64,000 nt of DNA. Origin: Taibaiella chishuiensis. GTDB taxonomy: Bacteria; Bacteroidota; Bacteroidia; Chitinophagales; Chitinophagaceae. Position 1 is the stretch's first letter; the number at the start of each line of letters is the position of its first letter. Below the pieces are notes generated by a model that was not told the DNA's origin, made no database searches, and saw only the letters and a list, made by a program, of their open reading frames with translations. Made by a program: the position numbers and the translations under genes. The stretch covers positions 62,001 to 126,000 of the forward strand of contig NZ_PYGD01000014.1 in NCBI RefSeq assembly GCF_003014535.1. The letters run 5' to 3'. Below are positions 1-62,478 of this stretch, piece after piece.

Positions 1-2504
1 AAACTTCGGGCGAAGCAGCCAAATACGCTATTGCCAACGAATACGATAAAATGGTGGCATCCATAGGCGCTAAAGGTTCCAATGCCTTTACCTCTTTCGA
101 GCAGACCGTATATACCGAAGACGTACCCAGCAATACCCTGGATAAATACCTGGCCATACAGGCCGAACGCTTCCGTAACCCGATACTGCGCCTGTTCCAT
201 ACCGAGCTGGAAGCGGTATACGAGGAGAAGAACCGCGGGCTGGACAACGACGGCCGCAAAGTAAACGAAGCCATGTTTGCCACCATCTTCCCGAACAATA
301 ATTATGGCAAGCAGACCACCCTGGGCACGGTAGAACACCTGAGAAACCCTTCGCTGGTCGAAATACGCAAATACTACAGTACCTATTATGTGCCCAACAA
401 TATGGGCATCATTATGTCGGGCGACTTTAACCCCGACCAGGTGGTAAGCCAGATCGATAAGGACTTTGGCTATATGCAATCCAAACCCGTACCGGCTTAT
501 ACCTTTAAACCTGAAGAGCCGATTAAAGCGCCCATCAACGTAAACGTTACCGGTCCGGAACCGGAGCGCGTGATGCTGGGCTTCCGCTTCCCGGGCGCCG
601 CTACCAAAGATGCACAGATGCTGGAACTGGTAGGCAATATCCTGACCAATGGCTCAGCCGGCCTGATCGACCTGAACCTGGTAAAAAAACAAAAACTGCT
701 GCAGGCCTTCGCTTTCCCCTATATCCTGAAAGACTACAGCGTGCTGATCCTGCAGGGTAACCCCGTGGAAGGACAGTCGTTGGACGATGTGAAAGCCCTG
801 ATGCTGGCGGAATTGGACAAACTGAAAAAAGGCGACTTCTCCGACGACCTGATCCAGGCTATCGTCAACAACGAAAAGAAAAAAATCATCGAGCGTAACG
901 AAAGCTACTCCGACAGGGCCGATGAGCTGATGAACAACTTCACCTCGGATGTAGACTGGCAGAGCCGTGTGGCTTATGTAAACGACCTGAGCAAGATCAC
1001 GAAACAGGATATCATGACCTTTGCCAACAAATACCTGGCCAATAACTACGTGGCGGTATACAAACGCCAGGGCGAAGACAAGAACATCGTTAAGGTAGAC
1101 AAACCGGAGATCACCGCGGTAGAAGTAAACCGCGAAGCCCAGTCTGCATTCCTGAAAAAGGTAAATGCAATGCCGGAAAACAAGATCAACCCGGTATGGC
1201 TCGATTACAAAAAAGATATCCAGAAAGCCAAGGCCGGCACTTACGAAGTACTGGCGGTACAGAACAAGGACAACGACCTGTTCCGTGTTTACTACCAATA
1301 TGAAACCGGCAGCTGGGCCAGCAAACTGTTGCCAATCGCTACGCAATACCTGGAGTTCCTGGGTACCAAAGACAAATCGTCTGAAGCGATCAGCAAAGAC
1401 TTCTACCAGATTGCCTCTTCTTTCAATATCAATGCCGGCGGCGAAAACACGACGGTAAGCATCGATGGCCTGCAGGAGCACATGGGTAAGGCAGTAAGCA
1501 TGTTCGATAACCTGCTGCGCAATTGCCAGCCCGATACCGAAGCGCTCGAGGCCTTTAAAACCAGGCTGAAGAAAGCCCGTGCCAACAAAAAACTGAACAA
1601 AGGACAGATTATGCGCGGCCTGAGCAGTTACGCACAGTACGGCAGCAGCAACCCTTTCAATAACGAACTGAGCGATGCCGAACTGAATGCCCTTACTGCC
1701 GAAGACCTGGTAAACGTACTGCACAACCTGGCCGGCTATCCGCACCGCGTACTGTACTACGGTCCACAGACCGCCACTGCCTTCGCTTCCAGCCTGGCCG
1801 GCATCCATACAACGCCTGCCGGTGGCATCAAAGCGCCGCCCGTTACCAAGAAGTTTATCCAGCAGACCCAGGGCAGTAATAAGGTGCTGTTTACCCATTA
1901 CGATATGGTACAGGCCGAGATCAACTGGCTGCGCACCTCCGATCCTTACCAGGCCGGCGAGATCCCGACCGTAACACTGTTCAACGAATATTTCGGTGGC
2001 GGCATGGGCTCTATCGTATTCCAGACCATCCGCGAGTCCAAAGCCCTGGCCTATACTACTTATGCCTACTTCAACCCGCCGGCCCGCAAGGAATACCGTA
2101 ATGTTGCCATGGCCTATGTAGGTACCCAATCCGACAAGTTTAACGATGCCGTTGCCGCTATGAACGAACTGCTCAATAACCTGCCCGAGTCGGATAAGGC
2201 CTTGCAAACTGCCAAAACAAGTGTACAGAAAACACTGGCTACCGAACGTATTACCCAGGACGGCATCTTATTCAGCTACCTGACCGCAGAGCGTATGGGC
2301 CGCGACTACGATATCCGTAAGAACACCTACGAGGCCGTACCGAAATTTACCTTTGCCGATCTTAAAAACTTCCACCAGAAAGAACTGAGCGCAAAACCGT
2401 ATACCTACTGTATTGTAGCCAACCAGGACAAACTGAAGGAAGAAGAAATGAAAAAACTGGGCGATTTCAAAAAACTGACGCTCGAAGAAATATTCGGTTA
2501 CTAA
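1..2504 (+). CDS. M16 family zinc metallopeptidase, 5' partial
   Basis: The reading frame is open from the first full codon at base 3, so the gene starts upstream of the window; the internal ATG at 51 is not the true start. About 834 residues are visible. They fit a two-repeat M16 (pitrilysin/insulinase-like) peptidase: residues such as ELEAVYEEKNR match the conserved distal glutamate helix that follows the HxxEH zinc motif, which must lie in the missing N-terminus. The second half repeats the fold, with FNEYFGGGMGSIVFQTIRE and the Y-x-x-Y-A stretch typical of the inactive C-terminal repeat. M16 enzymes degrade peptides in the periplasm or cytoplasm. A hairpin terminator follows the stop. Family assignment is confident; substrate and location are unknown because the signal region is absent. 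Confidence 0.9.
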   Translation, partial: TSGEAAKYAIANEYDKMVASIGAKGSNAFTSFEQTVYTEDVPSNTLDKYLAIQAERFRNPILRLFHTELEAVYEEKNRGLDNDGRKVNEAMFATIFPNNNYGKQTTLGTVEHLRNPSLVEIRKYYSTYYVPNNMGIIMSGDFNPDQVVSQIDKDFGYMQSKPVPAYTFKPEEPIKAPINVNVTGPEPERVMLGFRFPGAATKDAQMLELVGNILTNGSAGLIDLNLVKKQKLLQAFAFPYILKDYSVLILQGNPVEGQSLDDVKALMLAELDKLKKGDFSDDLIQAIVNNEKKKIIERNESYSDRADELMNNFTSDVDWQSRVAYVNDLSKITKQDIMTFANKYLANNYVAVYKRQGEDKNIVKVDKPEITAVEVNREAQSAFLKKVNAMPENKINPVWLDYKKDIQKAKAGTYEVLAVQNKDNDLFRVYYQYETGSWASKLLPIATQYLEFLGTKDKSSEAISKDFYQIASSFNINAGGENTTVSIDGLQEHMGKAVSMFDNLLRNCQPDTEALEAFKTRLKKARANKKLNKGQIMRGLSSYAQYGSSNPFNNELSDAELNALTAEDLVNVLHNLAGYPHRVLYYGPQTATAFASSLAGIHTTPAGGIKAPPVTKKFIQQTQGSNKVLFTHYDMVQAEINWLRTSDPYQAGEIPTVTLFNEYFGGGMGSIVFQTIRESKALAYTTYAYFNPPARKEYRNVAMAYVGTQSDKFNDAVAAMNELLNNLPESDKALQTAKTSVQKTLATERITQDGILFSYLTAERMGRDYDIRKNTYEAVPKFTFADLKNFHQKELSAKPYTYCIVANQDKLKEEEMKKLGDFKKLTLEEIFGY

Positions 2505-2527
2505 CCGCATCTTTTCCCTGTACAAAC

Positions 2528-2559
2528 AATGGCATCCGGTCTTATGGATGCCATTGTTT
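2528..2559 (+). terminator. Rho-independent terminator after the M16 gene
   Basis: An 11-bp stem CAATGGCATCC / GGATGCCATTG (2528-2538 and 2546-2556) has a 7-nt loop and a short T run, 24 bases after the stop codon of the M16 peptidase gene. Confidence 0.75.
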
Positions 2560-2566
2560 ATTGTAT

Positions 2567-2574
2567 TAGCTTTG
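2567..2574 (+). promoter_or_regulatory. Putative Bacteroidota -7 promoter box for folB
   Basis: TAGCTTTG matches the Bacteroidota TAnnTTTG -7 element. It lies 17 bases before the ATG at 2592 and just after the preceding terminator. TTG trinucleotides occur upstream, but no strong -33 element is clear. Confidence 0.5.
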
Positions 2575-2591
2575 CCTCCTAAAACATTACC

Positions 2592-2924
2592 ATGCTTACC
2601 GTTTCCCTTGCCGGTGTGCGCTTTCACGCCGCGATAGGCCTTTACCCGCAGGAGGCTTTCCTGCTCAACGAAATCGAAATGCAGATCTCCGTATCGGTCG
2701 AATCGGGTATCGATACCCTGCCCCTGATCGATTATACCCGGCTGCACAGCATTGCCGCCGCATCGGTAAGCGAGCCGGCCGCCCTGCTGGAAACCGTGGT
2801 ACAACGTATTGTAACGGCCATAAACCTGGAGTACCCCGGCAGCAAACTGAGCGTGGCCGTGCGCAAGCTCAACCCGCCCATGCCCGGCACTGTTGCCCAT
2901 TCGGAGGTAAAATGGGAATCCTGA
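2592..2924 (+). CDS. folB: dihydroneopterin aldolase FolB
   Basis: The 110-residue protein has the usual FolB length and motifs: G-V-R-F-H-A near residue 8, the GLYPQE segment near residue 16 (GxxxxE is typical), the IDYTRLH block in the middle, the LLETVVQRIV helix, and the C-terminal KLNPPMPG segment containing the active-site lysine region. FolB converts 7,8-dihydroneopterin to 6-hydroxymethyl-7,8-dihydropterin and glycolaldehyde in folate synthesis, in the cytoplasm as an oligomer. The ATG at 2592 is the only sensible start and follows a TAGCTTTG promoter box. A MoxR-type ATPase gene follows 56 bases downstream on the same strand but is functionally unrelated. Confidence 0.9.
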   Translation: MLTVSLAGVRFHAAIGLYPQEAFLLNEIEMQISVSVESGIDTLPLIDYTRLHSIAAASVSEPAALLETVVQRIVTAINLEYPGSKLSVAVRKLNPPMPGTVAHSEVKWES

Positions 2925-2980
2925 TGGTAACAAGCAAATAAATTGCTAACATTGTATACTGCAAACTGATTTGATCAAAA

Positions 2981-3976
2981 ATGGAAGAAAACACAGCGTA
3001 TACGCAAACCGGCAATAATGCCGCCGCCCGCATCCCGCAGCTGATCGCGCATATGGAACGCGTTATCCGTGGCAAACGCCCGCAGATAGAAATGGTGATT
3101 ACCTGCCTGCTGGCCAAGGGGCATGTATTGATGGAAGATAACCCCGGAACCGGTAAAACAGTACTGGCGCGTACCCTGGCCCATTCCATAAGCGGTAAGG
3201 GCGAAGCGGGCAATGTCCTCTTCAAACGTATCCAGTTTACCCCCGACCTGTTGCCGATGGACCTGATCGGTTCGCACCTGTTCGACGAAAAGAATACCGA
3301 TTTCATATTTAAAAAAGGACCGCTCTTCTGTAATGTGTTGCTGGCCGATGAGATCAACAGGGCCTCGCCTAAGGTGCAAAGCGCGCTGCTGGAATGTATG
3401 GCAGAAGGCCAGATTACCGTAGGCGATGTAACCACCAAACTGGAAGACCTCTTTTTTACCATTGCCACACAGAATCCCGTCGAGATGGAAGGCACCTATC
3501 CCCTGCCCGCCGCCCAGCTGGACCGTTTCTTTATGAAGATCTATTTCGGGTATGTGGATGCCGCTACCGAAGTGGAGATCTACCGTAACTATGCCACCAT
3601 ACAGGATAACCTGGAGCACCTGGACCAGGTATTAAGCCTGGAAGATGTGCTGGGCCTGCGAAAAGAGGCCGAGCAGGTATTTGTACACGACGAAATCATA
3701 CAGGCCACGGCCAATATCGTACGCGGTACCCGCGAGCATCCCGAAATTACCCTGGGCGCCAGTACCCGCGCCGGTATTGCCTTCCTGCGCTGCCTGCGTG
3801 CTTATGCACTCGTAAAAGGCAGGAGCTTCGTGATCGAAGACGATGTACAAGATATAGCCCGCAGCGTACTGGACCACCGCCTGATCTACCGCAACAAGGA
3901 AGGCAGGCTCAAGGCTTTTGACCAGATCCTGCAAAAAGAAATGGATCGCCTGTCCAAACTCAAACTGCAAGGCTAA
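2981..3976 (+). CDS. MoxR-family AAA+ ATPase
   Basis: The 331-residue cytoplasmic protein has Walker A DNPGTGKT at residues 53-60, the FKRIQFTPDLLPMDLIG block, Walker B VLLADEINRASPK near 119-131, and sensor 1 IATQNP. This order is diagnostic of MoxR ATPases. MoxR proteins act as chaperone-like ATPases, often with VWA-domain or DUF58 partners. Here the usual partners (DUF58, VWA/BatA-BatD) do not follow; the next gene is a DUF2807 lipoprotein, so this copy appears to be separated from the classical moxR-bat cluster. Start ATG 2981 gives a normal N-terminus. Family is certain; the client is unknown. Confidence 0.92.
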   Translation: MEENTAYTQTGNNAAARIPQLIAHMERVIRGKRPQIEMVITCLLAKGHVLMEDNPGTGKTVLARTLAHSISGKGEAGNVLFKRIQFTPDLLPMDLIGSHLFDEKNTDFIFKKGPLFCNVLLADEINRASPKVQSALLECMAEGQITVGDVTTKLEDLFFTIATQNPVEMEGTYPLPAAQLDRFFMKIYFGYVDAATEVEIYRNYATIQDNLEHLDQVLSLEDVLGLRKEAEQVFVHDEIIQATANIVRGTREHPEITLGASTRAGIAFLRCLRAYALVKGRSFVIEDDVQDIARSVLDHRLIYRNKEGRLKAFDQILQKEMDRLSKLKLQG

Positions 3977-9368: not shown

Positions 9369-9689
9369 GTAATCCATTAGCCACACCTAAAATCAACAGG
9401 TAAACTAGGGGGACATTAGAGGGGGCACGAAAATGGGTATTCATCTTACTATTACCCTTGTAGACATTTTAAGAAAAAATCTATCTTTGTCGGATACCTA
9501 TTGCCCCGGCCGGATCATTCCCGGAAGCGGCGTCTACCTATGCAGCCCGGGACCGCCGGCATTACCCGGAAACAATATGAAGGTAATTTAACTCGTAGAA
9601 ATTTATCGGGTTGAGCGGGAGTTCAAGTACTCCGGATAAAATACCAGGTAAAGCCGGGAAAAGCGGATCAACGAAAAACAAAAAGCAAG
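9369..9689 (+). promoter_or_regulatory. Promoter and 200-nt leader of the TerB-ATPase-helicase operon
   Basis: This 321-base gap holds a good Bacteroidota promoter: TTG at 9458-9460, a 21-base spacer, and TATCTTTG at 9482-9489. The stretch from about 9495 to the ATG at 9690 is an untranslated leader with several GC-rich inverted segments (CCCGG/CCGGG types near 9515-9570 and again near 9630-9660). No ORF of note is present. The long structured leader could regulate expression, but I do not recognise a known riboswitch. Confidence 0.55.
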
Positions 9690-11513
9690 ATGCAAAGTAA
9701 TCCTCAGGACAAGGAAACCCAGCCCTCAGTGCATCCCACACCTGGCCCGGGCAATGATAACGGCATTATCGATATTTCATCGATATCCTATGATTTGCGA
9801 ACGAACCTTCCTTCAGAAGAACAAAAACTACATGTCCCCGATTGGGATCATCATTACGTTTATGCGTATAACGAATTAAACGCAGCCTCAAAAGCACAAA
9901 AAGACTTCTATAGAACGTTTAAAGTAGAGTTTTTGCAAGGCAACTGCCTTAATCTGAACGGGAACGTAAACTACGCATTTATCCTCCTGTTTGACCTGCT
10001 GAATGATTATGACAGGCATAAAAACCTGTCCCAGTTGGAAAAATGGCTTAATATTCTAACACAGCATTACCCCAAAACACACCGGTATGCCCAATCCTTC
10101 TTCAATAAACTGAAATACCCTGATGCGGCCCCCGGACTACCCGGGAACAATCAGCAGCAAGCACACGACGAACATTACTGGAAGCTGGGACTTCGGTTCA
10201 GGACCAAATTAAACCTGACGGATGCAGAGGTTAACCTGCTCAATAAGCTTTGGCTACAAACCAACAACTTCTGTGCTATTGAATCCTGTTATTTGCAGTT
10301 GATCAAGTTATTCCTTTTGTCTGTTCGTAAATTGGAAAAGGACTACAAAAAAGCCAATACCTCATTAGAAGCCATTATCGACAAGATCTCCGGGATCGTC
10401 TCTTCCAGGCACCTTAATTACAAAAATGACAGTGAAAGCCATAAATATTTTGTCCAGTCTTTTTCCAGCCAACTCTATGCGCACCTGTTCCGGACATGCG
10501 AAAACGTGATCCGGGAGGTATATGGTCATAAACGAAAACTGACCATTGATTTTCCGCTTACCGGGCTTAACGAGGCCGAAGCCTTGTATAAAGTAGAAGT
10601 ATTTTCGAAATACACGGACTTGTTAACCGAATTAATCCCGACGATCCAGTTGCCGGATCATGATACCGACATTGCATTAAACATTTTAAACCCGACCCGT
10701 TGGAAAATCCGTTTTGACCAAATATGCAAAGACCATGGATCCAACCCGCAGGAGTTCCTGTATTCGGTTGTAGCATTGGCCAAACAAAACGAAAAGAATT
10801 CCTCTGTTGAGGACATTCTTTTCGAAGCCTCGAAGTTCATGGCAAAACAGGACAAAGAAACGGCTTTAAGACTGTACCTGCATCATATCAACTATGACCT
10901 GAAATCCGCCACTTTCGATTACAAAAAACATTCGAAAAGCATTCAGAAAAACCTTTTTGCGAATGACGAACAATTAAACAAATTTGAAACCCTGGTAAGC
11001 CAGTTTATTAAGGATCATAATCTCGCTGCGGCCCTGGACGCCGTTCCGGCCGTATACGCCCTGAAACGCAAGAAAATCGAACTAGATATAAACTCTATAC
11101 AAGAGGCCAGCAGCAGGCATGCCGATACCGTATTACTGCTGAATGATATCCTGGCTGATGAGGATGATGTCCCGCAGCCCCTTACCGTGCCGGCCGCTAC
11201 CGGAACTACCGGGCCAAAAGCAGATTTACAAACTGAAGATAAGCCATCTGAAGCGGTACGGCCATCCCTGTATGTTTCGGGCCTGGGGCTAACCGGCATC
11301 CAGGAACAATCGCTTATTTACTTTGTAAAAAACAACTTTTCGGTGGCGCAAAGCGACTTTGAAAGCTTTGCAAAATCCAATGGCTCCTTTAAAAATCATT
11401 TGATTGAAAGTATCAACGGAGCCTGCTTCGACTTCCTGGATGACCTTATCATTGAAGAAGACAATGACTTTTATACCGTTAATCCAACCTATTATCATCA
11501 ACTATTAGCATGA
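9690..11513 (+). CDS. sngA: TerB_N/TerB_C domain protein, Shango SngA-like
   Basis: The 607-residue soluble protein opens with a low-complexity tail, followed by a TerB_N-type region around residues 50-230. Its best match is the YWKLGLRFRTKLNLT...LLNKLWLQTNNFC.IESC block (about 163-200). The last 150 residues look like TerB_C: an EASSRHADTVLLLNDIL helix, an acidic linker, then GLTGIQEQSLIYFV with a final AFD-like FDFLDDLIIEEDNDFY segment. TerB modules occur in tellurite-resistance and phage-defence contexts. The downstream ATPase gene starts inside its stop codon (ATGA), so the two are translationally coupled. Gene order TerB-ATPase-helicase matches my memory of the Shango defence system, where the TerB protein is SngA. 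Domain call fairly sure; system name from synteny and recall. Confidence 0.75.
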   Translation: MQSNPQDKETQPSVHPTPGPGNDNGIIDISSISYDLRTNLPSEEQKLHVPDWDHHYVYAYNELNAASKAQKDFYRTFKVEFLQGNCLNLNGNVNYAFILLFDLLNDYDRHKNLSQLEKWLNILTQHYPKTHRYAQSFFNKLKYPDAAPGLPGNNQQQAHDEHYWKLGLRFRTKLNLTDAEVNLLNKLWLQTNNFCAIESCYLQLIKLFLLSVRKLEKDYKKANTSLEAIIDKISGIVSSRHLNYKNDSESHKYFVQSFSSQLYAHLFRTCENVIREVYGHKRKLTIDFPLTGLNEAEALYKVEVFSKYTDLLTELIPTIQLPDHDTDIALNILNPTRWKIRFDQICKDHGSNPQEFLYSVVALAKQNEKNSSVEDILFEASKFMAKQDKETALRLYLHHINYDLKSATFDYKKHSKSIQKNLFANDEQLNKFETLVSQFIKDHNLAAALDAVPAVYALKRKKIELDINSIQEASSRHADTVLLLNDILADEDDVPQPLTVPAATGTTGPKADLQTEDKPSEAVRPSLYVSGLGLTGIQEQSLIYFVKNNFSVAQSDFESFAKSNGSFKNHLIESINGACFDFLDDLIIEEDNDFYTVNPTYYHQLLA

Positions 11514-12829
11514 CCAACAACATCAACATTAAACCTAAAGAAGCTACTGCAATTATAAATTCATTGATCGGGGGTGTTGTTCCCAAAATCGGGGTGCAAC
11601 ATATAACAGTGGGCCGCTCCGAGGAAATTGCCGCATTCGTGACCGCGCTGGAAGATGTCAGGAATGGTCACAGTATGGTTAAATTCTGGATCGGCGATTT
11701 CGGATCCGGAAAATCATTCATGCTCCACCTGCTCAATACCGTAGCGTTAAAACAAAAGTTTGTAGTAGCAAACGCAGACTTTACACCCGACAATCGCCTG
11801 TATGCCAACGATGGCAAAGCTGTGGCTCTGTATACCGCCATTATGGACAATATTGCGATCCAGACAAAACCAGAGGGTGGCGCATTGCCGACCTTAATGG
11901 AGAAATGGATTGAACAGGTCATCACGCAAACCGCGGAAAAGAATAATATTTCCTTGACGCAAATACGCAGCGAGGAATACCTGAACCTCGTTCAAAGTAA
12001 TATCATGAAAACGATCAATGAAATTACCGAGGTCGGTGGCTTCGACTTTGGTACCGTGATCATGAAGTACTATGAAGGTTATATCAAAGACGATGATCAG
12101 CTGCGCAAGAATGCACTTAAATGGCTGAAAGGCGAATACCATACGAAGACGGAAGCTAAACAGGATCTTGGTGTCCGGGAAATCGTAAATGATCTCAATT
12201 TCTACGACATGCTGAAGAACTTTTGCAAATTTTTTGTGAGCATGGGTTATAGTGGCTTCATGATTAACCTTGACGAAGCGATCAATCTCTATAAAATATC
12301 CACCTCAGTAATGCGCGAAAAAAACTATGAGAAAATCCTTTCCATTTATAACGACTGTTTCCAGGGGAAAGTAGCCAACTTGTTTTTCAACTTTGCGGGA
12401 ACCAAAGAGGTACTGGAAAATGAACGCAGGGGCTTATTCAGTTATCATGCCTTGAAATCGAGACTGGAGACCAACAGGTTTGAAACCGCCGGAGTGCGGG
12501 ATTTTGCGCAGCCTGTAATCCGTTTGCTACCGCTCGACCATAATGAGATATTCGTTCTGCTCAATAAGTTAAAGGATATCTTCGATTTCAATTACAAGAT
12601 GGAGAGTGATATTACCGACGAAGAAATTCTTCAGTTCATGGAGGAAATGTTCAACAAACCCGGGGCAGCTGAATTCCTGACCCCGAGAGAGGTCATTCGC
12701 GACTTCCTGAATATACTCAATATCCTGCGTCAAAACCCGGACCTTGACAAATCAAAATTATTTGGCGACATAGAGATTAGGGACGAAAGACCAAATGAAT
12801 TTTCTCTTGATAATATAGAAGAATTATAA
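11510..12829 (+). CDS. sngB: DUF2791/BrxD-type P-loop ATPase, Shango SngB-like
   Basis: The 439-residue protein has Walker A GDFGSGKS (residues 62-69) after VGR.EEIAAFVTALEDVRNGHSMVKFWI, the signature start of the DUF2791 family, and Walker B-like GFMINLDEAINL (about 249-260). The same family supplies BrxD of type 2 BREX. The ATG overlaps the upstream stop by 4 bases, and its own stop TAA overlaps the helicase start by one base (TAATG). The ATPase probably works with the TerB protein and helicase as a complex sensing or processing invading DNA; that is inference from the family and gene order. No BREX methyltransferase or PglZ gene is nearby. Confidence 0.8.
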   Translation: MTNNINIKPKEATAIINSLIGGVVPKIGVQHITVGRSEEIAAFVTALEDVRNGHSMVKFWIGDFGSGKSFMLHLLNTVALKQKFVVANADFTPDNRLYANDGKAVALYTAIMDNIAIQTKPEGGALPTLMEKWIEQVITQTAEKNNISLTQIRSEEYLNLVQSNIMKTINEITEVGGFDFGTVIMKYYEGYIKDDDQLRKNALKWLKGEYHTKTEAKQDLGVREIVNDLNFYDMLKNFCKFFVSMGYSGFMINLDEAINLYKISTSVMREKNYEKILSIYNDCFQGKVANLFFNFAGTKEVLENERRGLFSYHALKSRLETNRFETAGVRDFAQPVIRLLPLDHNEIFVLLNKLKDIFDFNYKMESDITDEEILQFMEEMFNKPGAAEFLTPREVIRDFLNILNILRQNPDLDKSKLFGDIEIRDERPNEFSLDNIEEL

Positions 12830-15012
12830 TGTCATTTAACCTGCTTTCCGAACCCATACGCAAATATGTCCGGGATAAGAAATGGGAACAGCTAAAACCC
12901 ATCCAGGCCGCAGCTATCGAGCGGATTCTTACTACAGAGGACAACTATATATTAGCTTCCCGTACAGCTTCGGGCAAAACTGAAGCTGCATTTCTGCCGG
13001 TGCTGTCTGCGGCCAACTTTAATGCGCCGGGGATTAAAGTACTGTACATCTCTCCGTTGATCGCATTGATCAATGACCAGTTTTTGCGGGTAGAGGAATT
13101 ATGCAAAAACCTTGAAGTACCGGTTACCAAATGGCATGGAGAGGCCAACAAATCATTAAAAGACCAATTGCTTAAGGACCCTTCAGGCGTAATGCTGATC
13201 ACACCTGAATCTATCGAAGCCATGTTTGTCAACAAACCTTTTAATGTTATCCGGTTGTTTAGCGGTTTGGAATTTGTGGTCATCGACGAAATTCATTCGT
13301 TTTTAGGAACCGACCGGGGCATCCAACTCAAATCCCTGCTCTCCAGGCTCCAGACCGTTAACCGGCATTACTTTCGCGTAATTGGTCTTTCCGCGACGAT
13401 CGGGGATTATGAGCTGGCGAAAACATTTGCCGGCCCATCCCGTAAAACGACCGTTTTGTTGGACAAGACACCCAAGGAGGTAAAGGTATCCTTCCGCTAT
13501 TTTTCAGGCGGAACAGATGAACTGCCCCTTGCCTTGCTGAAAAATTTATACCTGGAAACAAAAGACAACAAGGCGCTCATATTTCCCAACAGCCGTGGAC
13601 GGGCGGAAGAGGTTGCCGTGAAGCTGAAGAAAATCTCGCAAAAAGTAAACGGGCACCCCAATTACTTTTCCCACCATTCATCCGTCGACCGCGACGAGAG
13701 AGAATATGTCGAGTATTTTGCGAAGAACAATACCCTCCACAATTTTTGTATCGCCTGCACATCAACGCTTGAATTGGGCATTGATATCGGCACGGTTGAT
13801 GAAGTGGTGCAGATCGACGCCAGCCATAGTATCGCCTCATTGGTCCAGAGACTGGGACGGAGCGGCCGCCGGGATGGCGCTGCCAGTACGCTTGTCTTAT
13901 ATGCAACAGGCCCCTGGAGCTTACTTCAGTCAATGGCGTGCTGGCTGCTGTACCGGGAAGGTTTTATCGAGCCCCCTGCTGAATCTTCAAAGCCATATGA
14001 CCTGCTTGCCCAACAGGCTTTGTCTATCGTCAAAGGGACTTCCGGTATCGCCCCCGATCAACTTATCGCACAGTTGAAGGGTAATTACGCCTTTGCGGCC
14101 ATAGCAGAAAACGAAATACTCCCGATCATCAATCATCTTATCGATACCGATATGCTCGAGCGCTTAGGCCGCGAACTCATTATTGGTGTAACGGGAGAAA
14201 AGGTCGTCAACAACAAGGATTTTTATAGCGCATTCACTACCGAGGAGCACTTTAAAGTCGTCCATGCCGGCAACAGGATTGGCGAAATACCCTATACGCC
14301 ACAGGTTCTCGTAGATCAGAATATTATGCTCGCCGCCAAAATCTGGAAAATACGGGATATCGACTTTAAAGCGAAAAAGATAGAAGTAGCGGTAGCCAAA
14401 GACGGGAAGAAGCCCATTTTCCTCGGCTTACCGGGAAACGTACATGCAAAAGTGCGTCAGAAAATGCTGGAAATTATTTATACCGGTGATTGCTATGATT
14501 TCCTGGACGAAGCCAGCGTCGACGAACTTAAAGTTATAAGATCAGACTTTAGGGCAGTACCCATCGAAGACCCCACAGTACAACGCCCGCTTATTGATAC
14601 CGGCAATAAATTACAGCTATTTGCCTTTACCAGTACGAAGATCAATAACACGATAGCGCTCTTGTTCCATATTAAAGGAATTCCATCCCAGTTTAACCCG
14701 CCCACAGATTCGTTTGAAGTCGTACTGGGATACACTGATTTCATGGCGCAGTGGCGCAGTCTTCCCGAAACCATTTCAGCTATCGATGGTTATCTGTCAG
14801 CACAAGCTGAAACGAATCCGGAAAAGAGTGAGGTGACGAAGTGGGCTTTTTTATTACCCCTGCCGCTCCGGATCGCTATTGCGAAAGAAAAGGTTTATGA
14901 TATTGAAGGTACACGCGCCTTTTTGGAGACTGTTACCTTTCTTGCAGCCCAACAAACCGAAGGTAATCAGGCGCCATTTTCCTCTATGGACCAGTTACCC
15001 GGTAAGGCCTGA
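12829..15012 (+). CDS. sngC: Lhr-like superfamily 2 DEAD/H helicase, Shango SngC-like
   Basis: The 727-residue protein carries the full SF2 motif set: Q-motif-like LKPIQAAAIE, Walker A ASRTASGKTE (about 43-52), Ia YISPLIALIND, Walker B VIDEIHS (151-157), motif III LSATIGD (188-194), motif IV/V with STLELGIDIG, and motif VI QRLGRSGRR (340-348). The EIHSFLG.DRG block is typical of Lhr-type helicases, but the length is under half of bacterial Lhr, as in BREX-associated and defence-associated relatives. A roughly 350-residue C-terminal region follows. It is translationally coupled to the ATPase gene. It probably unwinds or translocates on foreign nucleic acid. A terminator follows. Confidence 0.82.
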   Translation: MSFNLLSEPIRKYVRDKKWEQLKPIQAAAIERILTTEDNYILASRTASGKTEAAFLPVLSAANFNAPGIKVLYISPLIALINDQFLRVEELCKNLEVPVTKWHGEANKSLKDQLLKDPSGVMLITPESIEAMFVNKPFNVIRLFSGLEFVVIDEIHSFLGTDRGIQLKSLLSRLQTVNRHYFRVIGLSATIGDYELAKTFAGPSRKTTVLLDKTPKEVKVSFRYFSGGTDELPLALLKNLYLETKDNKALIFPNSRGRAEEVAVKLKKISQKVNGHPNYFSHHSSVDRDEREYVEYFAKNNTLHNFCIACTSTLELGIDIGTVDEVVQIDASHSIASLVQRLGRSGRRDGAASTLVLYATGPWSLLQSMACWLLYREGFIEPPAESSKPYDLLAQQALSIVKGTSGIAPDQLIAQLKGNYAFAAIAENEILPIINHLIDTDMLERLGRELIIGVTGEKVVNNKDFYSAFTTEEHFKVVHAGNRIGEIPYTPQVLVDQNIMLAAKIWKIRDIDFKAKKIEVAVAKDGKKPIFLGLPGNVHAKVRQKMLEIIYTGDCYDFLDEASVDELKVIRSDFRAVPIEDPTVQRPLIDTGNKLQLFAFTSTKINNTIALLFHIKGIPSQFNPPTDSFEVVLGYTDFMAQWRSLPETISAIDGYLSAQAETNPEKSEVTKWAFLLPLPLRIAIAKEKVYDIEGTRAFLETVTFLAAQQTEGNQAPFSSMDQLPGKA

Positions 15013-15056: not shown

Positions 15057-15084
15057 AAATGCCGGCTGGAAAGCCGGCATTTGC
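15057..15084 (+). terminator. Terminator after the defence-type operon
   Basis: An 11-bp stem AAATGCCGGCT / AGCCGGCATTT (15057-15067 and 15072-15082) has a GGAA loop and ends in TTT. It lies 44 bases after the helicase stop and may also act on the converging S9 peptidase transcript. Confidence 0.8.
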
Positions 15085-41430: not shown

Positions 41431-42120
41431 ATGAACCGCATCGACCGGCTTTTCGGTATACTCACCTTTCTTCAGTCCAGGAAATATGTAAGCGCCGAAA
41501 AAATAGCGGATAAATTCGGGATCAGTGTAAGAACTGTATACCGCGATATTAAAGCCCTCTGCGAACAGGGTATCCCCATCAGTTTTGAACAACATAAAGG
41601 TTACTTCGTGGTGCAGGGTTATTTCCTGCCGCCGGTTTCCTTCAGCAATGAAGAGGCCAATGCCCTGCTGCTGATCGAAGCCCTGGTCAGTGGTTTTGCC
41701 GACCGCTCCATACAGAATCATTATGCCACGGCGCTCAATAAAGTAAAGGCCGTATTACGGCATACGCAAAAGGAAAAACTGGAGCTGCTGCACCCCAATA
41801 TCATGTTGCAGGTGCCCAAAAGGATCATGAACGACCTGGATTACCTTTCCGTATTGCAGGAGGCCATCAGTTCGAAACACATCCTGGCGATAGAATATAA
41901 AAATAATAAGGAGGAGATCAGTAACCGGCGGCTCGAGCCTATAGGCCTTATCTTTTATGCCTTTAGCTGGCACCTGATCGCCTGGTGTCACCTGCGCAGC
42001 GAATACCGTGATTTTAAAGTAGCCAGCATTATCCGGGTAAAAAACACCCAGGACCCATTCCTGCGTCCCGGGCATATTTCGCTGAACGAGTATACCAAAA
42101 TGCTGCCGGTGGATTATTAA
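41431..42120 (+). CDS. YafY-like transcriptional regulator with HTH and WYL domains
   Basis: The 229-residue protein has an N-terminal winged helix (IADKFGISVRTVYRDIKALCEQG, about residues 23-45), a central helical linker and a C-terminal WYL domain starting near LAIEYKNNKEEISNRRLEPIGLIFY. WYL domains bind nucleotide or nucleic-acid ligands, and such regulators often react to DNA damage or phage stress. A strong terminator follows. The next gene is a DinB-family protein with its own start region. Confidence 0.88.
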   Translation: MNRIDRLFGILTFLQSRKYVSAEKIADKFGISVRTVYRDIKALCEQGIPISFEQHKGYFVVQGYFLPPVSFSNEEANALLLIEALVSGFADRSIQNHYATALNKVKAVLRHTQKEKLELLHPNIMLQVPKRIMNDLDYLSVLQEAISSKHILAIEYKNNKEEISNRRLEPIGLIFYAFSWHLIAWCHLRSEYRDFKVASIIRVKNTQDPFLRPGHISLNEYTKMLPVDY

Positions 42121-60225: not shown

Positions 60226-62478
60226 CTACCGGTCTATATGCTCCCGTAAACAGGCCGCCGTCGCCGAAGCGCTGTCCTGCAGCAAGCCGGCGACGGTTCC
60301 TGTAAACAGGATATTTCCGCCATATTTACCGGCGCCGGGTCCCATATCGACAATCCAGTCGGCATGCGCAATAACATCCAGGTTATGTTCAATCACGATC
60401 AGCGTATTGCCCTTATCGACCAGGGTATCCAAAAAATCCAGGAGCTTTTCGGTATCGCTGGGATGCAGGCCGGTGCTCGGTTCGTCGAGCACGATTAGTT
60501 TGTTGTCCTGTTTGAGTTCCCGGCTCAGTTTTAACCGCTGCCTTTCGCCACCGGAAAAACTATCGAGCCTTTGCCCCAGGGTCAGGTACCCCAGGCCCAG
60601 CTTGGATAACAGGTCGAAGGCAGCCCTGTACAAATCGTCCGGGAAGAAAGCGATCGCTTCCCCAACCGTCATGTCCATTACCGCTACTATATTTTTGCCC
60701 CGGTAAAGATAGGGAAGCACTTCGGGCCGGAAACCCGAGCCTCCGCAAACTTCACAGGGCTGCTCTATATCATCCATAAACGCGAGGTCGATTTTTTCGA
60801 CACCGGTACCCTTGCAGTTGACGCAGGCGCCTTCGCTGTTCCTGCTAAAAAGTTTCGGCGATACACCATTCGCTTTAGCAAACCGCATCCTTAAATCGTT
60901 GGAAAGGTTAAGATAGGTCAGCAGGTTGGACCGGACACTTGCAGCAAATAACGACTGATCGATAATCGTAACCTCCGGGTAAAACCGGGGCAGTACTTTA
61001 TTGATCAGGGTACTCTTGCCCGAACCGGCAACACCCGTAACTACGGTCATTACCCCTTGTGGTATGTGTACCGTTACATCTTTAAGGTTATGCAGGTTGC
61101 CGTGTTTAAGCTCCAGGTAACCTTTTGCCTTCCTGGGCTGGTGACGGATACGGGGTTGTTTCGAAAAATAAAGACCTGTTTTACCCTTTGACCGTTGCAG
61201 TCCTTCAAAGCAGCCTTCGTAAACAATCTCGCCACCATCCTTGCCGGACTGCGGGCCCATATCGATCACCCAGTCGGCTATTTTAACCAGGTCGGGATCA
61301 TGCTCTACGACCAGCACCGTATTGCCTTTATCCCTGATCTGGCGGATAATAGCAGCAATGTTCTGCAGGTCTCGTGGATGCAGGCCAATACTGGGTTCAT
61401 CAAAAATATAGAGCAGGTCGGTAAGATTATTACCCAGGTTCTTTACCATTTTTATACGCTGGCTTTCGCCGCCCGAAAGTGTATCCGTCCTCCTGTCGAG
61501 GGTCAGGTATTGCAAGCCTATGCCGACGATGTTTTTAAGTTTCTTTTCCAGTTCTGCCAACAGGCTTTCATAAGCGCCCGGTTGCAGTAATGCTACGAAT
61601 GCCAGCAGCTCGTCTATCGAAAGCGCCGTACAGTCGGCGATATCTTTACCCTTAATCCTGCAGGACAGGATCTTATCGTTTAACCGCTTGCCCCCGCAAG
61701 CCGGGCAGGGTTTCGTAATGATGACATTTTTCAGGGCCTCCTTCCGGGTCACATTTTCCCTGGACTCTTTTTTCAGAAAAGCCTTTTCGATCCGGGGCAC
61801 TATGCCTTCGTATTTTACGGTCTTTCCCCACTCCCGGTGCGGCTTTCGGGGTTTATGTTCCGGGGCGTATAACAACAGTTCCAATTCCTCCGGCCCGTAC
61901 TCTGCCAATTGCTTATCGTTATCGAAATAGCCCGACAAGGTATACCGTGTCAGGCGCCAGCCACCCGGCTGGAAAGTGGGAAACAGGATGGCGCCTTCGT
62001 TGAGCGACTTCTGCTTATCGATCAGGGCATCCATATCGACGGTTTGTACAAAACCGAGGCCTTCACATTCCGGGCACATGCCCAAAGGATTATTGAACGA
62101 GAAGGCATTGGAATACCCGACAAAAGGCTTTCCCATCCTGGAAAAAAGCAGCCGCAGCGACGCATACACATCGGTGGCCGTGCCTACGGTCGATCTTGCG
62201 CTTCCGCCCAGCCGCTTCTGGTTGATGATAATGGGCACGTTCAGGTTTTCGATCGCCTCTACGTCCGGCACACCGATATGCTGAAGCCGGTTGCGGATAA
62301 AGCTGCCCTGGGTTTCGTTAAACTGGCGCTGCGCCTCGGCCCCGATCGTTTCAAATACCAGCGAGGATTTGCCCGAACCGGACACACCGGTAAAAACGAC
62401 GATCTTATGCTTCGGTATCGTTACCGAAATATTCTTCAGATTATTTTGACACGCATGGGTTATGATAATCTTCTTCAT
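60226..62478 (-). CDS. Short UvrA-like ABC ATPase (UvrA2/drug-resistance type)
   Basis: The 750-residue protein has two ABC ATPase cores: Walker [10 protein letters not shown] (residues 31-39) and GVAGSGKST in the second half, signatures [10 protein letters not shown] and [10 protein letters not shown], and zinc-binding cysteine pairs (CPECEG, CPACGG, CVNCKG, CEVCGG). It is about 190 residues shorter than UvrA (roughly 940), which suggests the UvrB-binding insertion is missing, as in UvrA2 and the UvrA-like drug-resistance proteins of antibiotic producers. It probably confers tolerance to DNA-damaging compounds rather than classical excision repair. It is divergent from a marR-like gene whose operator overlaps its promoter. 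Confidence 0.88.

What the first reader, a model, noticed from the sequence alone, without database searches (positions are those of the whole stretch)
9690..15012. TerB-ATPase-helicase operon: Shango-type anti-phage system
Three tightly coupled genes (ATGA and TAATG overlaps) encode a TerB_N/TerB_C protein, a DUF2791/BrxD ATPase and a short Lhr-like helicase. From memory this gene order is that of the Shango defence system (SngA, SngB, SngC). The block has its own promoter, leader and terminator, is more A+T-rich by eye than its flanks, and sits between ordinary core genes. No BREX methyltransferase or PglZ is present. It is probably a known system, but how TerB domains act in it is poorly understood.
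Basis: partly seen in the sequence, partly recalled or inferred. Interest (0 to 1): 0.8.

Follow-up and report, generated by a model that had tools for sequence, protein, structure and literature searches.

The report
Shango defence operon, TerB-less Bacteroidota variant
Three overlapping genes form a Shango-type bacterial system against viruses, a known kind whose mechanism is unknown, in a branch whose first protein lacks two of its three usual domains and in many relatives is tied to the cell membrane.

Summary
Window 9690-15012 (+) encodes three coupled genes that match PADLOC SngA, SngB and SngC (E 2.4e-36, 1.5e-169, 1.3e-205). They are A+T-rich against the window, absent from the 3 other genus genomes searched, and moved horizontally. 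By PADLOC's models this is Shango, already tested in E. coli and P. aeruginosa.

One claim fails: there is no TerB_N. Of 58 SngAs scanned (the window's and 57 relatives), TerB_C is in 58, TerB_N and TerB in 0. Nine SngAs from outside this branch have TerB_N, and eight have TerB at E<=0.01. The window's genome has no TerB (PF05099) match.

Two leads come from relatives. SngA N-termini are exchanged: helix, signal peptide+SH3+helix, TM2, zinc ribbon or none (51 of 75 membrane-type; the window's is not). And 15 of 83 loci carry a BRCT gene with TerB-like repeats, fused to the helicase in one more.

Best guess: an ATPase-helicase complex organised by SngA, usually at the inner membrane, acting on incoming phage DNA. 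Identity is near certain; mechanism is inferred. New variant of a known kind.

The parts
9458..9489 (+). Bacteroidota-type promoter-like sequence (TTG-N21-TATCTTTG), about 200 nt before sngA
   Evidence: Pattern match; consensus recalled; not evidence of function
9690..11513 (+). sngA: 607-aa SngA homologue without an N-terminal hydrophobic segment
   Evidence: PADLOC SngA 2.4e-36; Kyte-Doolittle maximum 1.17 in the first 120 residues; AF2 model pLDDT 84.9, mostly helical
9756..9776 (+). short motif DNGIIDI (branch consensus D-x-S-I-I-D-V) in the N-terminal tail, residues 23-29
   Evidence: Motif in 54 of 74 SngA N-termini of relatives against a shuffled mean of 1.04 and maximum of 4; mean pLDDT 46 for residues 21-30
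11049..11504 (+). TerB_C domain of SngA, residues 454-605
   Evidence: PF15615 1.6e-21; the only part aligned to canonical SngA by profile comparison
11510..12829 (+). sngB: BrxC/BrxD-type AAA ATPase, 439 aa
   Evidence: PADLOC SngB 1.5e-169; PF10923 1.6e-148; 38% identity to an E. coli SngB
11693..11716 (+). Walker A of SngB (GDFGSGKS, residues 62-69)
   Evidence: Window. Relatives: 79 of 83 by that pattern, 83 of 83 by a looser one
12257..12280 (+). Walker B of SngB (FMINLDEA, residues 250-257)
   Evidence: Window. Relatives: 81 of 83, 83 of 83 by a looser, short pattern
12829..15012 (+). sngC: Lhr/BrxHI-like SF2 helicase, 727 aa
   Evidence: PADLOC SngC 1.3e-205, BrxHI 4.1e-128; DEAD and Helicase_C; 32% identity to an E. 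coli SngC
13285..13296 (+). helicase motif II (DEIH, residues 153-156)
   Evidence: Window. Relatives: 78 of 78 uncut SngC loci
15059..15080 (+). terminator-like hairpin after sngC
   Evidence: By eye; scan reports 15065-15078; the number of such sites is not above shuffles

Best explanation
The block is a complete, apparently intact Shango-type anti-phage operon of a distinct, mainly Bacteroidota branch. SngA is a scaffold: its variable N-terminus places the complex, a conserved short motif in its disordered tail and a helical middle probably hold partners, and its TerB_C end is the shared core. SngB is a BrxC/BrxD-type AAA ATPase and SngC an SF2 helicase of the SngC/BrxHI type. Proposed mechanism: SngA assembles SngB and SngC on foreign DNA, in most relatives at the inner membrane where DNA enters; SngB hydrolyses ATP to load or switch SngC, and SngC tracks along and remodels phage DNA, blocking its replication or handing it to a nuclease. 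The window's SngA has no anchor, so this copy would work in the cytosol. SHOWN: gene identity and order, intact motifs, patchy and horizontally moved distribution, missing domains, exchanged N-termini. INFERRED: complex formation, DNA substrate, membrane site of action, ATPase-to-helicase hand-off. My split: Shango identity 0.95; anti-phage role here 0.85; acts on DNA 0.7; SngA as positioning scaffold 0.5; recognition of DNA ends 0.25.
For: Identity. Motifs: with looser patterns written after a first set missed some, Walker A and B in 83 of 83 SngB and helicase motifs I, II, III, VI in 78 of 78 uncut SngC loci; the first set gave 79 and 81 of 83, and 1, 78, 66 and 16 of 78. Mobile: SngB in 0 of 3 other genus genomes and 7 of 294 family genomes including its own, 4 of the 7 at 78% identity or more; Chitinophagia plus window rejected as one clade, p-AU 1.1e-4 (group set by taxonomy, but after the tree had been seen). 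Published activity of Shango in P. aeruginosa: modest, 10-100-fold EOP change against many but not all phages (PMC10250203, passages). SngC groups with BrxHI, DruE and DpdJ in a potentially distinct SF2 clade of antiphage helicases (PMC12278908, passages). Scaffold: median identity to the window SngB 82.6%, SngC 58.6%, SngA 38.6%, so the ATPase is fixed and SngA varies. Membrane: 49 of 74 SngA N-termini pass a hydrophobicity test against 0 of 74 SngB and 0 of 73 SngC; in 37 of 39 helix-type SngAs more K/R follow than precede the helix, which puts the bulk in the cytosol. DNA: a BRCT gene beside SngA or SngC and fused to SngC in L082; DnaQ-type exonucleases beside others; metallophosphoesterase plus SMC ATPase after two archaeal Shango operons.
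Against: No nuclease domain reaches its cut-off in any of the three proteins, so how DNA would be inactivated is open. The window's SngA has no anchor and its genome no match to the BRCT gene, so neither lead is essential. 22 of 75 scored SngAs, the window's among them, have no N-terminal module. In 349 genomes of L028's family, 3 of 4 carriers of the BRCT gene had no SngB match and 2 of 3 SngB carriers had no BRCT gene at E<=1e-20; the one genome with both, G309, is the centre and was in by construction, so that gene is not tied to Shango. The SngA model matches no solved structure at E<=0.001. Hydrophobicity is a crude predictor and starts were taken as the first ATG.
Confidence: 0.6

Rival explanations
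1. A fragment of, or accessory to, a BREX type 2 system: BrxD plus BrxHI with an extra TerB_C protein.
For: SngB matches BrxD (2.3e-44) and SngC matches BrxHI (4.1e-128); NCBIfam BrxD 1.4e-44.
Against: Shango models score far higher (1.5e-169, 1.3e-205). The NCBIfam BrxD hit has 152.8 bits against a cut-off of 350. No PglX or PglZ among the 25 of 30 PADLOC families displayed for 48 other window ORFs (5 families were not displayed); the genome's only PglZ match is on another contig.
Confidence: 0.03
2. A chromosomal stress or DNA-repair operon (Ter-like or Lhr-like) kept for housekeeping rather than defence.
For: TerB-family domains are named for tellurite resistance; Lhr-like helicases act in repair (recalled); ordinary flanks; no other defence system stood out among the families displayed for the window.
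Against: SngB absent from 3 of 3 other genus genomes and 287 of 294 family genomes; A+T-rich; horizontal spread; SngB-like genes on 692 of 72,556 plasmid records, which may include BREX homologues; Shango operons elsewhere lie near restriction, CBASS-like, AbiE, Wadjet or toxin genes (4 of the regions looked at).
Confidence: 0.07
3. Shango that works by abortive infection: the ATPase or helicase senses phage DNA and the cell stops growing, with SngA as effector.
For: Many defence systems with ATPase sensors do so (recalled); the middle of SngA has an unclassified helical fold; membrane anchoring would suit a membrane effector.
Against: No known toxin domain in SngA. The P. [quoted passage not shown]
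Confidence: 0.2
4. An anti-plasmid or anti-conjugation system acting on any entering DNA, with phage defence a side effect.
For: A membrane site would suit any DNA entry; inference only.
Against: SngB-like genes are themselves on 692 plasmid records, 542 of them predicted conjugative (BREX homologues not separated); no test here.
Confidence: 0.1

Closest known systems
Shango (SngA-SngB-SngC) of E. coli, Klebsiella, P. aeruginosa
   Same: Same three genes, order and strand (E. coli L141; Klebsiella L131); SngB 38% and SngC 32% identical to the E. coli AVS0501 copies; intact motifs. The P. aeruginosa operon was not compared by sequence.
   Different: SngA lacks TerB_N and TerB, and only TerB_C aligns by profile; BLASTP of the window and E. 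coli SngAs gives only E 0.02. The E. coli and Klebsiella SngAs have an N-terminal hydrophobic segment, the window's has none.
Bacteroidota-branch Shango (80 loci from GTDB genomes, e.g. Flavobacterium L028)
   Same: SngB 70-87% identical, same gene order, TerB_C only in the 57 relatives scanned.
   Different: Most scored relatives have a membrane-type SngA N-terminus and some an added BRCT gene; the window has neither.
BREX type 2 BrxD and BrxHI
   Same: Homologous ATPase and helicase.
   Different: No PglX or PglZ recognised beside the block; much lower scores than the Shango models.
Dionysus (TerB-homologue defence system)
   Same: Named in a review as a TerB defence system (PMC12926258, passages).
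   Different: Not compared by sequence; the window protein has no recognisable TerB domain.

Membership tests
Shango | Three-gene operon matching the SngA, SngB and SngC models (PADLOC's definition) | tested here: met
   Models match in order, ATGA and TAATG overlaps
Shango | BrxC/D-type ATPase with intact Walker motifs | tested here: met
Shango | SF2 helicase of SngC type with intact motifs | tested here: met
   Motifs II, III, VI by pattern; motif I (SRTASGKT) read by eye
Shango | TerB_C domain in SngA | tested here: met
   PF15615 1.6e-21
Shango | TerB_N (PF13208) and TerB (PF05099) in SngA: usual in characterised members, but not required by PADLOC's model, and one of 9 SngAs outside the branch also lacks a TerB match | tested here: not met
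   Not detected in the window or 57 relatives; outside the branch TerB_N 9 of 9, TerB 8 of 9 at E<=0.01. A review table lists PF05099 for Shango (PMC10952713). Hence filed as a variant branch
Shango | Protection against phages | not testable with these tools
   Shown by others in P. aeruginosa (PMC10250203), not for this branch
BREX type 2 | PglX methyltransferase and PglZ in the cluster | tested here: not met
   None displayed for 48 window ORFs (25 of 30 families shown); one PglZ match in the genome, on another contig
Ter (tellurite resistance) system | TerB domain and TerC/TerD partners | tested here: not met
   No PF05099 match in the whole genome; TerC and TerD were not searched

The most novel reading that the evidence does not exclude
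Shango is an envelope-proximal DNA interceptor. SngA is a modular tether whose N-terminus is exchanged (bare helix, extracytoplasmic SH3 sensor plus helix, TM2, zinc ribbon), so that the same ATPase-helicase engine can be placed at, or triggered from, different envelope sites. The TerB domain is dispensable in SngA and can return as a TerB-like/BRCT subunit, even fused to the helicase, which brings the engine to the DNA ends of entering linear phage genomes. The window's copy is a stripped-down form that keeps only the engine and the TerB_C scaffold.
Probability: 0.25. Interest if true: 0.75.

Novelty: new variant of a known kind. Interest (0 to 1): 0.48.

Why it matters
How Shango works appears to be open: a 2026 review lists its mechanism as unknown (PMC12926258, passage; the same line also lists Hachiman, for which a mechanism is published, so the review is not a firm guide). 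The window's branch removes a distraction: a genome without any PF05099 match carries an intact-looking Shango, so TerB is unlikely to be the active principle if this branch protects. Natural exchange of SngA N-termini and a natural helicase-BRCT fusion point to concrete tests: does SngA place the complex at the membrane, does it bind SngB or SngC by the DxSIIDV motif, and does the added subunit bind DNA ends?

Tried and rejected
BREX remnant: rejected on scores and missing partners. Clean empty site in relatives: not found. The left flank (rhodanese to the 160-aa gene) is kept in G001 and G003, but there it is followed by a gene of 222 or 185 aa and a WYL regulator whose 79-81% homologue lies at window 41431-42117; the right flank (S9 peptidase onward) is kept in G001 on another contig. 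So the block sits at a break in genus synteny and exact insertion borders cannot be given. Separate small membrane peptide upstream of SngAs without an anchor: none seen by eye in the three forward frames of the window's leader; hydrophobic frames upstream in 3 of 12 relatives scanned, with nothing in common to the eye. TerB_N or TerB hidden in the middle of SngA: five sub-alignment comparisons gave probabilities under 1% against 96.8% for the TerB_C control; the canonical alignment has only 9 sequences, one a fragment, so remote homology is not excluded. Solved-structure match for SngA: none at E<=0.001. MADS-like hit at window 60229-62478: a UvrA-like ABC protein. Shango on phages: no SngB match among 50,697 phage records, and none in an IMG/VR scan that finds close relatives only. 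Literature: searches showed me no paper describing SngA membrane anchors or a TerB-BRCT partner; one search listed 20 of 44 papers, all by their titles unrelated, and of the listed papers I saw passages of five only. Subscription papers are mostly not held and preprints hardly, so this is no claim of absence from print.
Full report
WHAT IS THERE. On the + strand, 9690-11513, 11510-12829 and 12829-15012 encode proteins of 607, 439 and 727 aa joined by ATGA and TAATG overlaps. PADLOC names them SngA (2.4e-36), SngB (1.5e-169) and SngC (1.3e-205). Pfam gives TerB_C, BrxC_BrxD, and DEAD plus Helicase_C. Walker motifs of SngB and helicase motifs II, III and VI of SngC are found by pattern and motif I by eye. 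Block G+C is 45.0%; 480 same-length stretches not overlapping it have a minimum of 48.2%.

WHERE IT SITS. SngB has one match in the window's genome, none in the 3 other genus genomes and 7 in 294 family genomes including its own; 3 of the 7 are 24-25% identical and probably BREX-type. Left-flank genes are kept in order in two genus relatives and right-flank genes in one, on different contigs and with other neighbours, so the block lies at a synteny break. A scan of GTDB genomes found 95 relatives and kept 80 loci. With three family loci, 83 were examined, 81 of them distinct in SngB: 82 have SngA, SngB and SngC in that order (L107 has no SngC match); L036, L081 and L107 carry extra ORFs inside; L081 and L106 hold a gene with an internal stop; several are cut by contig ends. 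A quick-method tree of 82 SngB rows, 36 of whose 79 inner branches are weakly supported, rejects Chitinophagia plus the window (11 rows) as one clade, p-AU 1.1e-4 (named by taxonomy, but after the tree was seen). Rows include Ignavibacteria, Acidobacteriota and two MAGs labelled Pseudomonadota. This fits a horizontally moved module.

THE BRANCH. Against the window, median identity is 82.6% for SngB, 58.6% for SngC and 38.6% for SngA. Beyond the branch SngB identity falls: of 692 plasmid records with a match, 3 are at 60% or more and 689 below, the best listed of these at 43.8%. TerB_C is in 58 of 58 branch SngAs (the window's and 57 relatives), TerB_N and TerB in none at E<=0.01. Of 9 SngAs from outside the branch (8 plasmid records, one of them a fragment, and one E. 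coli chromosome), TerB_N and TerB_C are in 9 and TerB at E<=0.01 in 8, 6 of them above Pfam's cut-off; the tenth protein of that scan, from Hymenobacter, belongs to the branch and has TerB_C only. Profile comparison aligns only the TerB_C part (sub-alignments under 1% against 96.8% for the TerB_C control). The window's genome has no PF05099 match. The branch thus either lost TerB_N and TerB or diverged beyond recognition; the AF2 model of the window SngA (pLDDT 84.9, pTM 0.56) has no solved-structure match at E<=0.001.

EXCHANGED N-TERMINI. Reading the SngA starts showed several kinds: a bare hydrophobic helix followed by lysines; a signal peptide, SH3 domain and second hydrophobic segment some 60-70 residues on; a TM2 domain; a zinc ribbon; or none. 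Of 75 scored (74 loci plus the window; 7 unscorable), 39 are helix, 10 SH3, 2 TM2, 2 zinc ribbon and 22 none, the window's among the last; at least 16 changes are needed on the quick SngB tree. Pfam finds SH3_3 in 10 and TM2 in 6 of 58, and L094 has both, so the scripted TM2 count is low. By one test (mean 1.6 or more in the first 60 residues), 49 of 74 SngA, 0 of 74 SngB and 0 of 73 SngC have a hydrophobic N-terminus, and in 37 of 39 helix types the charge bias puts the bulk in the cytosol. Outside the branch, by a different cut (1.8 or more in the first 120 residues), 7 of 9 SngAs pass (E. coli, Klebsiella, Cetobacterium, Roseobacter, Pseudoalteromonas, two haloarchaea) and Moraxella and Paenibacillus do not (this set of nine has L134 in place of the fragment L136). 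So a membrane-type SngA looks common in Shango at large, and the window's is the minority form.

SHORT MOTIF. D-x-S-I-I-D-V or close follows the variable part in 54 of 74 N-termini against a shuffled mean of 1.04 and maximum of 4. In the window it is DNGIIDI at residues 23-29, in a stretch of low model confidence. It was found in 0 of the 9 SngAs outside the branch. A docking site is the natural reading, untested.

ADDED SUBUNIT. In 15 of 83 loci a protein of mostly about 300 aa lies near the operon: 11 directly before SngA on the same strand (-41 to 102 bp), one opposite, three after SngC at 37, 75 and 999 bp. With the fusion below this makes 16 of 82 tree rows; 48 lack it and 18 have too little flank to tell. 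Pfam finds BRCT in 6 of 7 scanned, and TerB (PF05099) at E<=0.1 in 2 of 7, above the cut-off in 1. AF2 gives pLDDT 79.9; the best structural matches are the DNA ligase in an integrative model (1.3e-5) and RFC1 BRCT (3e-3), and no TerB structure is among the 50 of 434 matches displayed, so 'TerB-like' rests on weak sequence evidence. In Mucilaginibacter pedocola (L082) the same protein is the C-terminal part of a single 1027-aa SngC. Of 47 genomes searched, the window's and 46 with a Shango locus (one further locus was not held), 13 have a match better than 1e-40, one of them the fusion; the window's has none. The gene also occurs alone: 3 of 4 carriers in 349 genomes of L028's family lack SngB, and 2 of 3 SngB carriers lack it; two of the three lone copies lie beside defence-like genes, and 32 IMG/VR contigs encode relatives. 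It is therefore a mobile gene that Shango recruits, not a fixed part.

HOW IT MOST LIKELY WORKS. See Best explanation. Shown are gene content, motifs and mobility. The rest is inference from SngC's place among defence helicases (PMC12278908, passages), BrxD homology, and DNA-end-related neighbours in relatives: BRCT, DnaQ-type exonucleases and metallophosphoesterase plus SMC ATPase after two archaeal operons.

COMPARISON AND VERDICT. By PADLOC's models this is Shango; the TerB_N and TerB domains usual in characterised members are not detectable, and activity is untested, so I file it as a variant branch. Five papers were seen as passages, the others as listings. The finding is a known kind of system in a variant whose anatomy narrows what the mechanism can be.

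Noticed in passing
L082:9307-12387: Single ORF fusing SngC to the TerB-like/BRCT protein in Mucilaginibacter pedocola; upstream ORFs at 146-3140 include three that read like VWA (TerY-type) proteins (by eye, not searched).
   Followed up: partly
L194-L225: 32 IMG/VR contigs encode relatives of the TerB-like/BRCT protein, many near contig ends, so it may be prophage cargo.
   Followed up: no
L188:6550-13159 and L189:731-11271: TerB-like/BRCT gene without SngB beside a JetC-like SMC protein (weak, 1.5e-6) and beside OLD-family and HEC-05-like genes.
   Followed up: partly
L132:8739-11230 and L134:8245-10236: Annotated metallophosphoesterase and SMC-family ATPase genes directly follow Shango on two haloarchaeal plasmids.
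   Followed up: no
L036:7560-9578: Two extra ORFs (196 and 478 aa; by eye DUF4062-like and AlbA/Schlafen-like) inserted between sngB and sngC.
   Followed up: no
L053:4611-5480, L055:12356-13225, L059:4615-5484: DnaQ-type exonuclease with a BRCT domain near Shango in three loci (Pfam for two of them, the third by similarity); further DnaQ-type exonucleases at L069, L074 and L046.
   Followed up: partly
window:41431-42117: WYL regulator whose relatives in G001 and G003 are the second gene after the 160-aa gene that borders the Shango block here; in the window the two are about 32 kb apart.
   Followed up: partly
window:60229-62478: UvrA-like ABC protein that cross-matches PADLOC mad3 and mad8; not a defence call.
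   Followed up: yes
G000:C10:167592-168167: PglZ-domain match (531-aa frame), probably a PorX-type regulator (recalled), not BREX.
   Followed up: no
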